From Desulfovibrio cuneatus DSM 11391 (GTDB lineage: Bacteria > Desulfobacterota > Desulfovibrionia > Desulfovibrionales > Desulfovibrionaceae): a stretch of 64,000 nucleotides of DNA. The position numbers and the translations under genes were made by a program. A model generated the notes under the pieces. That model was given only the letters and a program-made list of their open reading frames with translations, was not told the DNA's origin and made no database searches. Position 1 is the stretch's first letter, and each line of letters starts with the position of its first letter. The stretch lies in NCBI RefSeq assembly GCF_000430005.1, contig NZ_AUCY01000014.1, forward strand, positions 1 to 64,000. Reading direction: 5' to 3'. Positions 41,434-44,042 of the stretch are shown in pieces.

Positions 41434-41676
41434 ATGCAACAAATTAATATTCACGAAGCTAAAACAAATCTTTCCAAACTCATTGAACAAGCCGTACATG
41501 GCGAACCATTTATTATTGCCAAGTCCGGCAAACCCATGGTGACGGTAACGGCCTATACCCCCTCGCAAGAACCTGCAAAGCGGGTGGGATTCATGCGGGG
41601 AATGATTACGATGCCGAAGGACTTCGACACCATGGGGCAAGAAGTCATTCAGGACATGTTCGCGGGGGAAGAATGA
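41434..41676 (+). CDS. Phd/YefM-family antitoxin
   Basis: An 80-residue protein from the ATG at 41434, which follows GGAG; an ATG at 41374 would include the promoter and operator. MQQINIHEAKTNLSKLIEQAVHGEPFIIAKSGKPMVTV is the Phd/YefM fold: an N-terminal DNA-binding and dimerisation unit. The C-terminal half MPKDFDTMGQEVIQDMF is the toxin-binding part seen in VapB-like partners of PIN toxins. Its stop overlaps the toxin ATG by four bases. It should neutralise the toxin and repress the operon. Confidence 0.93.
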   Translation: MQQINIHEAKTNLSKLIEQAVHGEPFIIAKSGKPMVTVTAYTPSQEPAKRVGFMRGMITMPKDFDTMGQEVIQDMFAGEE

Positions 41677-42086
41677 ACTTGCTCCTTGATACCCATATGC
41701 TCATATGGGCGGCAGTCGGAACACTTCCACGCAAGGCAGAGCAGCTTTTGGTAGATGCCAATAACACACTGTACTTCAGCCCTGCCAGCCTGTGGGAAAT
41801 TGGCATAAAGCAAAGCCTTGGCAGAAATGACTTTGCAGTGGATGCTGCAATGCTGCGGCGCGGCCTTGTGGATGCCCATTATATTGAGCTGCCCATTACG
41901 GCCCAACATACCCTGGCTGTAAACGACCTGCCCGCCCTGCATAAAGACCCTTTTGACAGAATACTCCTGGCCCAGGCCAAATGCGAGGGGTTTTGGTTGC
42001 TTACAAGTGATAAGCAGATAAAGGAATACCCTGGATCGGTTTTGTTTATTGGAAGGGGTGATGCGGCGTGGCGGCCGCAAAAGTGA
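41673..42086 (+). CDS. PIN-domain toxin (VapC-like)
   Basis: Predicted endoribonuclease, typically cleaving tRNA or rRNA when the antitoxin is lost. The 137-residue protein has the acidic PIN residues in order: MNLLLDTHMLIWAA with D6, SPASLWEIGIKQSLG with the Glu, and LHKDPFDRILLAQA with the late Asp; another is in LLTSDK. It overlaps the antitoxin stop by four bases (ATGA), so the pair is coupled. The stop is followed by a 1-kb non-coding inverted repeat. The arrangement is typical of accessory toxin-antitoxin loci. Confidence 0.93.
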   Translation: MNLLLDTHMLIWAAVGTLPRKAEQLLVDANNTLYFSPASLWEIGIKQSLGRNDFAVDAAMLRRGLVDAHYIELPITAQHTLAVNDLPALHKDPFDRILLAQAKCEGFWLLTSDKQIKEYPGSVLFIGRGDAAWRPQK

Positions 42087-42111: not shown

Positions 42112-43090
42112 AGTTTCTTGCGGCGCAGGCGCCACACCATTCCTCTTTTCTCTTTATTTTTCCGCTCCGCTAGGGCAGGTGGGGCCCTTGTGCGGCCCCC
42201 CTGCACCCCCACACCCTTGGGGCTCTGCCCCAAGACCCCGTTTAGGTTACGGCCCGCGCTTAGGCTATTTGTTTCCTACCTCGCTGCGCTCGGGGCGCAA
42301 ACAAATAGAAACGCGCGGGGAGTACACCCTGCTGAGAATGGGTAGCCTCGTCTGATACGGGGAGTAAATACGCAACGGCCCTGCCGCATAAGGACATTGC
42401 CTTACTGGTGGGGAGCGGTGGAGAAGTGTACCGCACTGTGCATGAGTGAGCGGGCGCAGCAAAGCGCGCGTTGGCTGGGGAAAACTCGAAGAATTATCTG
42501 TAAGGTGCGGCGAAGACGCCGCAAGAGCCCACTACAGCCGCATACCCAGGCGGAGTGGGGCTATAAAGTTACCGTTTCCCTTTACCAAAGGAATCACCTT
42601 CAGTGGCAGAGTCTTTATTCTACCCATACCCTCCACACAAGAGATTACTCATAACCCCACCGCCGTACGTGCGCTTTGTTGCGCCCAACCACTCATGCGA
42701 AGTACCACCTATTTGCCCTCACTTCCCGTCAATGTGGTACTTACCTTCTGTGGCATAATTGACTATGACAGCAAGCAACCGATAAGTGCCGCCTCACCCA
42801 TTCCCTGCACGGTGTTTTTCCGCGCGAATATATTTGTGCAGCGCCACGAGCGCAGCGAGTTAGCGAAACAAATCTACCTGAGCGCGGGCCGCAACCTAGC
42901 GGGGTCACGGGGTGCAACCCCGTGCGCCTGGGGTCGTTAGGGGGCCGGGCGAGGGCCCCCTAACCCTAGCGGAGCGGATGAACTAAGAGAAAAGAAGAAT
43001 GGAGTGGCGCTTGCGCCGCATAAACCCAAGCGGAGCGGCAAACAAAACAAGAAAAGCGGTAGCACGCGGCGGCACGCCGCAAGAAACTCA
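42112..43090. repeat. 0.9-kb imperfect inverted repeat, non-coding
   Basis: Left arm about 42119-42465, right arm about 42665-43020. The right arm read backwards follows the left in order: GCGGCGCAGGCGCCAC/GCGGCGCAAGCGCCAC, CCGCTCCGCTAGGG in both, GCGGCCCGCGCT/GCGGCCCGCGCTC, CTCGCTGCGCTCG in both, and innermost GGGCGCAGCAAAGCGCGCGT/GGGCGCAACAAAGCGCACGT. The arms are diverged by substitutions and indels, and the centre is unrelated. The right end has an additional repeat of TTTCTTGCGGCG. No credible gene lies inside. The whole 42087-43163 stretch is otherwise empty. Confidence 0.75.
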
Positions 43091-43105
43091 ACATTCCCTC
43101 TTAAC

Positions 43106-43143
43106 AACAAAGAAGGGCCGTCCATGCGACGACCCTTCTTTGT
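43106..43143. terminator. Hairpin after flxA
   Basis: AACAAAGAAGGG pairs exactly with CCCTTCTTTGTT around CCGTCCATGCGACGA. It lies 21 bp beyond the flxA stop on the minus strand and probably ends the hdr-flx operon, although the minus-side tail TTGTTGTTAAG is only partly U-rich. Confidence 0.75.
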
Positions 43144-43163
43144 TCTTCATCCAACCAAACCCA

Positions 43164-44042
43164 TTACAACTCGTTGGGTATCTCTTTCAGTTCTGCCAGG
43201 GTAAACACCGGGCCATCTACGCACACGTATTTGTCCCCAATGTTACAGCGCCCGCAAATACCAATACCGCACTTCATGCGTTTTTCCAGGGTGGTCACAA
43301 TCTGTTCCGGTGCAAAGCCCAGCTTTTCCAGGGCTTGCAGCGTAAACTTGATCATAATGGGCGGGCCGCAGGTAATGGCCACACAGTTATTGGCGGAGGG
43401 TGCCATTTCCAGCAGCACGTTGGGAATAAGCCCCACTTTGTGTTGCCAGCCTTCGGCTTCTCTGTCAATGGTCAGCACACAGTCCAGGTCGTCGCGCCCC
43501 AGCCATTCCGGCAGTTCATAGGAAAACGCCATATCTTGCGGGGAACGGGCCCCGTACAGCAGGCTGATTTTCCCGTAGTCTTTGCGGTTATCCAGCATGA
43601 ACAGGAGCAGCGTACGCAAGGGGGCCATGCCAATGCCGCCCCCAACAAACACAATGTCCTTGCCCTTCATGCTTTCATACGGAAAGGAGTTGCCAAGGGG
43701 GCCGCGCACGCCAATGGTGTCGCCAGCGGCCACGTTGTGCAGGGCTTGGGTATTTTCCCCTGTGCGCATCACGCTGAACTGCAAGTAGTCCATGCGGGTT
43801 GGCGGGGAGTTGATTACAAAGGTAGATTCCCCAAAGCCAAACACAGAGAGTTGCCCCACCTGCCCCGGCTGGAACGTAAAGCTCTTCATGGCGTCCGCGT
43901 CTTGCAGCACCACGCGAAACGTTTTGATGTTAGGGGTTTCGTCTATTACCTCTACCACGGTAGCCAGGTAGGGCATATAGGGGTTGGGGGTGCTGGCATC
44001 ACAGCTTGGGCGTTGTGGCGCAGCGGCAGTATTAGTAGCCAT
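43164..44042 (-). CDS. flxA: Flx complex NADH-oxidising FAD/[2Fe-2S] subunit
   Basis: Takes hydride from NAD(P)H and passes electrons into the Flx/Hdr complex. The 292-residue protein belongs to the ferredoxin-NADP reductase family. The FAD-binding barrel includes FQPGQVGQLSVFG, the nucleotide site is DIVFVGGGIGMAPLRTLL, and the C-terminal [2Fe-2S] ligands are C258, C263, C266 and C274 (KCGIGICGRCNIGDKYVC). It starts 4 bp after flxB with AAGGAG before the ATG, and ends the operon. In Desulfovibrio vulgaris the homologous complex links NADH to ferredoxin and DsrC. Confidence 0.92.
   Translation of the reverse strand: MATNTAAAPQRPSCDASTPNPYMPYLATVVEVIDETPNIKTFRVVLQDADAMKSFTFQPGQVGQLSVFGFGESTFVINSPPTRMDYLQFSVMRTGENTQALHNVAAGDTIGVRGPLGNSFPYESMKGKDIVFVGGGIGMAPLRTLLLFMLDNRKDYGKISLLYGARSPQDMAFSYELPEWLGRDDLDCVLTIDREAEGWQHKVGLIPNVLLEMAPSANNCVAITCGPPIMIKFTLQALEKLGFAPEQIVTTLEKRMKCGIGICGRCNIGDKYVCVDGPVFTLAELKEIPNEL

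What the first reader, a model, noticed from the sequence alone, without database searches (positions are those of the whole stretch)
42112..43090. 0.9-kb imperfect palindrome: two diverged inverted copies of an unknown ~350-bp element
Ordered blocks of the left arm recur in reverse on the right over about 350 bp, with about 200 bp of unrelated centre. Both arms can be read to give similar peptides (CGAxATPFxFSL...SAPLGxxG) on opposite strands, but the pattern of indels does not favour coding. It could be a non-autonomous mobile element pair, a structured RNA locus or the remnant of a composite element carrying the toxin-antitoxin pair. I know of no named family.
Basis: partly seen in the sequence, partly recalled or inferred. 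Interest (0 to 1): 0.75.

Follow-up and report, generated by a model that had tools for sequence, protein, structure and literature searches.

The report
Dispersed palindromic repeat bordering toxin cassettes
The palindrome is one of about 38 copies of a large, hairpin-rich, non-coding repeat found in full only in this one bacterial species among those searched, and some other copies sit at the edges of toxin-type, immunity-type and phage-defence genes, as if marking where such genes are gained and swapped.

Summary
The palindrome is real (arms 77% identical over 228 aligned positions, E 3.6e-40). It is a copy of a modular, non-coding repeat with 38 strong cores in the 3.36-Mb genome. None of 14 congeners matches the core model; ten other family genomes match at only 29-40 bits. 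A half-element reads R (REP-type hairpins) - A (structured core) - L - B - T. Halves occur alone, in tandem, or as inverted pairs like the window's. The core's stems are kept by compensatory changes; whether it folds as RNA or DNA is unresolved. The R side faces a gene's 3' end in 28 of 33 cases. All seven matches to a mini-Rhs (toxin-type) gene lie 15-340 bp from a half-element, and a KAP-NTPase and a DpnII-type restriction system lie on inner sides. The window copy is cargo-free, between convergent genes; the toxin-antitoxin pair beside it is outside. Some other copies end in canonical CGTC-tagged REPs. No RAYT, target duplication or nearby tyrosine recombinase was found; other transposase families were not searched. 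Best reading: an oversized REP/BOX/NIME-type mosaic element, probably non-autonomous mobile DNA, bordering exchangeable toxin and defence cassettes. Mobility and transcription are untested.

The parts
42112..43088 (.). whole cargo-free inverted pair; perfect 14-nt ends 42112-42125 / 43075-43088
42115..42171 (+). R module, left arm: REP-type hairpin TGCGGCGCAGGCGCCAC with GTAG 5' of it
   Evidence: profile match 57 bits; tag seen
42162..42319 (+). A core, left arm: two GC-rich hairpins, possible H-type pseudoknot, long-range CCCGCGC/GCGCGGG and ATTTGTT/AACAAAT stems
   Evidence: covariance model 148.8 bits; pair counts
42430..42474 (+). B module, left arm
   Evidence: profile match 50 bits
42477..42526 (+). 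T module: GAAGAATTATCTGTAAGGTGCGGCGAAGACGCCGC, inner end of a half-element
   Evidence: profile match 56 bits; by eye, T-bearing copies diverge beyond it unless cargo or a short tail is shared
42588..42663 (-). tail of the repeat unit of the right half (42527-42587, between T and this tail, had no such match)
   Evidence: matches to C34 and C19 copies; compare C6:82038-83305
42664..42705 (-). B module, right arm (no T on this arm)
   Evidence: profile match 46 bits
42730..42757 (-). L module, right arm (no L profile match on the left arm)
   Evidence: profile match 21 bits
42819..42977 (-). A core, right arm
   Evidence: covariance model 164.6 bits
42968..43024 (-). R module, right arm, inner copy
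   Evidence: profile match 53 bits
43029..43085 (-). R module, right arm, outer copy (TGCGGCGTGCCGCC hairpin)
   Evidence: profile match 23 bits; hairpin

Best explanation
The locus is a cargo-free copy of a large modular REP-type mosaic element: two half-elements facing each other, the left with the T end, the right without. Shown: 38 strong core copies in this genome; non-coding; stems conserved by compensatory change; orientation tied to the 3' ends of neighbouring genes; some other copies next to or around Rhs-type toxin genes, small AT-rich genes and defence genes. Inferred: the half-elements spread as non-autonomous hairpin-ended DNA, moved in trans by an enzyme not identified. Their many similar copies then act as the shared homology through which accessory cassettes are inserted, duplicated, swapped and lost. 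The structured arms are tolerated downstream of genes and may keep transcription of core genes from running into cargo. The window pair would be a cassette border with nothing inside.
For: 51 BLAST matches at E<=1, itself included, to the left arm in the own genome; 45 covariance-model matches at E<=0.01, 38 of them at 73 bits or more. 14 of 43 pairs change on both sides, 96.4% of cells paired, 0 of 500 shuffles reach the covariation score. All 7 of 7 matches to one mini-Rhs query lie about 15-340 bp from a half-element: five on a T side, two (C9, C20) next to an R. Cassettes at C31 and C6 (two copies), and at C25 and C33, share 86-92% identical DNA from the R region or the hairpins outside it through A-L-B-T into the Rhs gene. 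T-side genes have lower GC3 than R-side genes (mean 50.5, n=19, against 60.0, n=35; p=0.014). R faces a gene 3' end in 28 of 33, p=6.6e-5. 26 CGTC-1-type REPs in the held stretches, directly outside R in 12 of 43 rows by eye. GTAG within 16 nt of the hairpin in 14 of 57 against 2.9% of random 16-mers. KAP-NTPase 24 bp after T at C1:223624; Dam/DpnII/MTase on the inner side of C6:21588, a half without T.
Against: No target-site duplication of 4 nt or more at 5 of 5 cargo-free pairs, with element edges set by eye. No sign of a RAYT: ten Y1 transposase part-matches lie at contig ends; nine were looked at and are pieces of one IS200 whose ends, by eye, differ from the element's; the tenth was not read. 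No tyrosine recombinase near a mapped copy (12 in the genome); the single IS110 is not beside a copy. DDE transposases and serine recombinases were not searched. No empty site could be compared: in 11 congeners that have the window's right-hand gene, none of five left-hand genes was found in the up to 1.5 kb held beside it. Most halves carry no recognisable cargo. Two Rhs matches lie on the R side, against the usual polarity. Cargo genes were picked by eye for the GC table. Cassette copies are related by duplication, so 7 of 7 is not seven independent events.
Confidence: 0.58

Rival explanations
1. Inert accumulation: a mosaic of REP-type palindromes that piles up harmlessly between gene ends. 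Cargo genes accumulate in the same tolerated sites and spread only by ordinary segmental duplication and recombination; the element itself does nothing.
For: 28 of 33 R sides face gene 3' ends and 5 of 5 cargo-free pairs lie between convergent genes, a pattern also described for ordinary REPs (PMC3733652, abstract and passages). No enzyme among the three families searched and no target duplication.
Against: Compensatory changes preserve stems. Polarity is mostly fixed: R outside, T towards cargo.
Confidence: 0.22
2. A family of large structured non-coding RNAs: each half is transcribed R to T, as a 3' extension of the upstream gene or on its own, and works as RNA.
For: Covariation in A; the window's left half folds better than 100 of 100 shuffles (z -3.65); R-to-T follows the upstream gene's direction in most cases. 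If the weakly supported helix 1 is counted, G-U cells (35) exceed A-C cells (24).
Against: In the five main helices G-U makes 12 and A-C 23 cells, where RNA selection predicts G-U excess; but 13 of the 23 come from one pair that I added by hand, so the test does not decide. L-B-T shows little covariation (1 of 17 pairs; there G-U 89 and A-C 0, but that structure was chosen by a program that favours G-U). No Rfam family reaches its cut-off. No promoter-like match inside the element.
Confidence: 0.15
3. Ends of a true composite transposon whose transposase has been lost from all copies or lies in a part missing from the assembly.
For: Inverted pairs around 2.5-3.7 kb of other DNA at C1, C25 and C33; many contig ends fall inside or near the element, so parts may be missing.
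Against: No transposase among the cargo proteins tested; no target duplication; halves also occur singly and in direct orientation.
Confidence: 0.05

Closest known systems
REP super-families (GTAG- and CGTC-tagged palindromes) and BIMEs
   Same: Outer hairpins are REP-like; D modules at other copies match the CGTC-1 format; opposite orientations; placed downstream of genes, often between convergent ones (PMC3733652 abstract, passages and one section)
   Different: Far larger (about 415-bp halves, about 1-kb pairs, against 20-40 bp in that abstract); a 157-position structured core and 147-bp tandem units; borders toxin-type and defence genes; no RAYT seen
BOX elements of Streptococcus pneumoniae
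   Same: Modular composite with a tandemly repeated middle module (boxA-boxB(n)-boxC), predicted stem-loops (PMC3049150 passages)
   Different: Longer; paired in inverted orientation; next to accessory cassettes; of the genome's IS elements only IS200 was compared at its ends, without likeness
Neisserial intergenic mosaic elements (dRS3 + RS repeats)
   Same: Mosaic of a 20-bp dRS3-type (CGTC-1) palindrome with longer repeats, in intergenic arrays linked to surface-protein genes (PMC3898611 passages; dRS3 = CGTC-1 in PMC3733652)
   Different: Here a fixed module order and inverted pairs; neighbours include Rhs, immunity-type and defence genes
Rhs/polymorphic toxin cassettes
   Same: Constant Rhs core (TIGR03696) with differing C-terminal ends and small neighbouring genes, as in PMC3482391 (passages)
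   Different: Here bordered by a dispersed structured repeat; the held part of that paper has no hit for 'inverted repeat' or 'palindrom'

Membership tests
CGTC-1 REP (D module of other copies) | CGTC/TGTC tag, 8-bp stem beginning with AT, 4-nt loop, CCA tail | tested here: met
   26 found by a pattern that already required tag, spacing and tail and at least 6 pairs; 20 have 8 and 6 have 7 of 8 pairs, 25 of 26 stems begin with AT; none lies in the 64-kb window
GTAG REP | GTAG tag at one end of the hairpin | tested here: inconclusive
   14 of 57 hairpins (57 of 66 kept by an orientation filter) have GTAG within 16 nt against 2.9% of random 16-mers; the window's left arm has it, most lack it
GTAG REP / REPtron | associated RAYT transposase gene in the genome | tested here: not met
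   ten Y1_Tnp part-matches, nine looked at and all one IS200; assembly 96% complete
MITE | terminal inverted repeats | tested here: met
   perfect 14-nt ends in the window
MITE | target-site duplication | tested here: not met
   no shared word of 4 nt or more within 20 nt at 5 of 5 cargo-free pairs; edges set by eye
MITE | AT-rich | tested here: not met
   element 57.6% GC, window 55.0%
BOX element | modular A-Bn-C with variable middle copy number | tested here: met
   tandem B units with a 147-bp period at C6, varying in number between copies; architecture only, no sequence relation claimed or tested
Integron cassette array | tyrosine recombinase at the array | tested here: not met
   none of 12 integrase matches lies within 9 kb of a mapped copy
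Structured non-coding RNA | conserved stems with compensatory change | tested here: met
   but 'further pair types' was below the shuffles (22 against 25.0) and the structure was partly derived from the same alignment
Structured non-coding RNA | wobble pairs tolerated on one strand | tested here: inconclusive
   G-U 12 against A-C 23 cells in five helices, 35 against 24 in all eight
Structured non-coding RNA | transcribed | not testable with these tools
   no RNA data

The most novel reading that the evidence does not exclude
A species-restricted cassette system: half-elements are specific recombination borders, folded as single-stranded hairpins with a pseudoknot, at which toxin-immunity and defence cassettes are captured, turned and exchanged by an unidentified enzyme, much as attC sites do for integrons but on an unrelated structure. 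Cargo-free pairs such as the window's are vacant docking sites.
Probability: 0.15. Interest if true: 0.88.

Novelty: new variant of a known kind. Interest (0 to 1): 0.6.

Why it matters
REP-type repeats are usually tiny hairpins of debated use. Here a much larger, modular relative is found in full in one species among those searched and is tied to polymorphic toxin-type and defence genes. That gives a concrete, testable case for interspersed repeats organising the gain and exchange of competition genes. It also offers some 38 diverged copies of one structured core in one genome, enough to settle by experiment whether such folds act as RNA or as DNA.

Tried and rejected
Group II intron remnant: suspected from the centre; Rfam at gathering score gave 0 matches and the relaxed scan six sub-threshold ones, none an intron. 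Coding peptides: rejected by 1-2 nt indels and by a 1-nt loop indel in T. Composite element carrying the PIN/Phd pair: rejected, the pair is outside the arms (Pfam PIN and Phd_YefM). Plasmid or phage origin: no match (near relatives may be left out there). Viral contigs: 0 exact matches to one 19-mer. GTDB r220 contigs: 1 exact match to the same 19-mer, in an alphaproteobacterial MAG, no more than chance by my estimate; the window's own genome may be left out. IS200, IS110 and tyrosine recombinases as movers. Empty-site comparison failed for lack of synteny. A column-pair covariation filter was hardly better than shuffles overall (875 against 816-849), so I rely on its top-ranked pairs and. 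The wobble-pair test was first taken as evidence against RNA; on recount it is inconclusive, and I moved the odds slightly (RNA reading up to 0.15, best explanation to 0.58, composite transposon to 0.05). A first D-module pattern had the wrong length and found nothing, corrected. One search lists three regions (C1:222320, C46, C57) reverse-complemented by my mistake; one search has them right.

Full report
1. What is there. The inverted arms at 42112-43088 are real and far beyond chance. Searching the genome in which the window lies (3,359,127 bases, 76 contigs) with the left arm gave 51 matches at E<=1, itself included. The palindrome is therefore one copy of a dispersed repeat family.

2. 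Anatomy. From 34 aligned half-elements and profile models the order is R-A-L-B-T. R is a block of about 57 nt with a TGCGGCG..CGCC hairpin, in one to three tandem copies. A is a 157-position core. L and B are short conserved blocks. T ends in GGTGCGGCGAAG(A)CGCCGC. In some copies L-B repeats in tandem with a period of 147 bp. Beyond T, T-bearing halves diverge except where neighbouring cargo or a short tail is shared (by eye). Halves occur singly, in direct repeat, and as inverted pairs. In the five cargo-free pairs one half has T and the other does not; the window is one of these. Further out, some other copies carry one or two modules of the form CGTC-ATCCCCGC-GCAG-GCGGGGAT-CCA, which meets the published description of CGTC-1 REPs (PMC3733652: abstract, passages and one short section seen).

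3. Distribution. A covariance model of A finds 45 matches at E<=0.01 in the own genome, 38 of them at 73 bits or more. Among 288 family genomes 11 have a match at E<=0.001, the own one included; the other ten reach 29-40 bits, eight of those ten are in one genus, and 10 of the 25 weak rows cover only positions of about 12-77. None of the 14 congeners matches in that search, which used stricter filters and scored ten candidates per genome; two had 27- and 31-nt BLAST matches. Congeners are 65-95% complete draft genomes, so absence is probable rather than proved. Plasmids, phages and viral contigs gave nothing.

4. Structure. With a stated structure of 43 pairs, 96.4% of cells pair, 14 pairs change on both sides, and 0 of 500 shuffles reach the covariation score; slid structures pair 31-56%. 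Four of these pairs form a possible H-type pseudoknot between a hairpin loop and a downstream strand; three of the four have changes on both sides, but the helix pairs in only 84.4% of cells and its first pair fails in 20 of 34. Against this: the structure was partly derived from the same alignment, I added six pairs by hand (the four pseudoknot pairs and two extending a stem), and further pair types were fewer than in shuffles (22 against 25.0). The strand test is inconclusive: in the five main helices G-U makes 12 cells and A-C 23, of which 13 come from one hand-added pair; over all eight helices G-U makes 35 and A-C 24, 23 of the 35 in helix 1, which has no two-sided change. L-B-T has almost no covariation (1 of 17 pairs).

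5. Position. The R side faces the 3' end of the nearest gene in 28 of 33 halves (binomial p 6.6e-5); of 38 halves, one had no gene on that side and four had none within 700 bp, and these five were not counted. All five cargo-free pairs lie between convergent genes, including the window, between the PIN gene and a gene read leftwards from 44042. ORFs were called by simple rules, so a few may be wrong.

6. Cargo. All seven matches to one mini-Rhs query lie beside or between half-elements: five follow a T end; the C9 and C20 ones, both partial, lie next to an R. All five Rhs proteins tested have the Rhs core domain. One Rhs tip, and a separate 128-aa ORF at C6, match a glucosaminidase family. Next to them lie small proteins without Pfam match (five tested). 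One inverted pair (C1:220798-224028) holds a KAP-family NTPase, with PADLOC candidate-defence matches and sub-cut-off QatA likeness, 24 bp after T; C6:21588, a half without T, has a Dam-type methylase, a DpnII-type nuclease and a second methylase on its inner side. GC3 of the non-Rhs cargo picked by eye is 27-50 (one 204-aa gene 61) against 61.9 +/- 4.8 for 84 other long ORFs. A rule-based comparison gives T-side mean 50.5 (n=19, one gene counted for two halves) and R-side mean 60.0 (n=35), p=0.014. Cassettes at different places share DNA from the R region or the hairpins outside it through the half-element into the Rhs gene, and homology ends within the gene.

7. Mechanism. Shown: multiplicity, modularity, orientation bias, structural conservation and cassette association. 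Inferred: mobility of the half-element and cassette exchange through it. Not found: an enzyme, in the three families searched, or target duplications. The ten Y1 transposase matches are fragments at contig ends; the nine looked at come from one IS200 with unlike ends. I could not compare occupied and empty sites because synteny at the window's right flank is lost in the congeners.

8. Relation to the literature. BOX elements (PMC3049150, passages), NIMEs with dRS3 (PMC3898611, passages) and tagged REPs (PMC3733652) are the closest kinds. Rhs cassettes and their exchange by recombination are well described (PMC3482391, passages). Searches joining Rhs or toxin cassettes with such repeats and on Desulfovibrio repeats listed nothing on this element, judging by the listings only (15 of 40 papers shown); most subscription papers are not held. 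That the organism belongs near Desulfovibrio is my inference from gene content, not a call.

9. Verdict. A real, unusual, oversized relative of known interspersed mosaic repeats, found in full in one species. It is of interest mainly for its tie to toxin-type and defence cassettes; the window copy itself carries none.

Noticed in passing
G000:C6:68109-73453 (L115), G000:C31:31388-34673 (L112): Tandem mini-Rhs cassettes with similar first parts and different C-terminal ends; a related cassette lies at an unlinked contig, next to the same kind of half-element.
   Followed up: partly
contig ends C5, C13, C15, C18, C20, C26, C34, C44, C51 of G000 (L084-L093): A multicopy IS200 breaks the assembly at many contig ends (nine of ten pieces looked at).
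   Followed up: partly
G000:C57:556-1704 (L128): A YhcG/DUF1016-type nuclease (PADLOC candidate PDC-S02) lies on the R side of a half-element, not the T side.
   Followed up: no
window 41434-42086: Phd-like antitoxin and PIN-domain toxin pair directly left of the element, outside it.
   Followed up: partly
window 43103-43147: 20-nt 90% inverted repeat between the element and the gene at 43164-44042; looks like a terminator, though the simple terminator scan did not list it.
   Followed up: no
60 nt outside many R modules: Purine-rich, often G-rich tracts recur just outside the outer hairpins, so the true element edge may lie further out.
   Followed up: no
family genomes G056-G063 (among L054-L082): One genus has several weak 29-40-bit matches to the core model, some over only the two GC-rich hairpins; possibly a shared building block.
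   Followed up: no
L148, L156, L157 (congeners): GGGGTCCGGGG..CCCCGG-type hairpins, like the core's second stem, lie beside an unrelated gene end in congeners.
   Followed up: no
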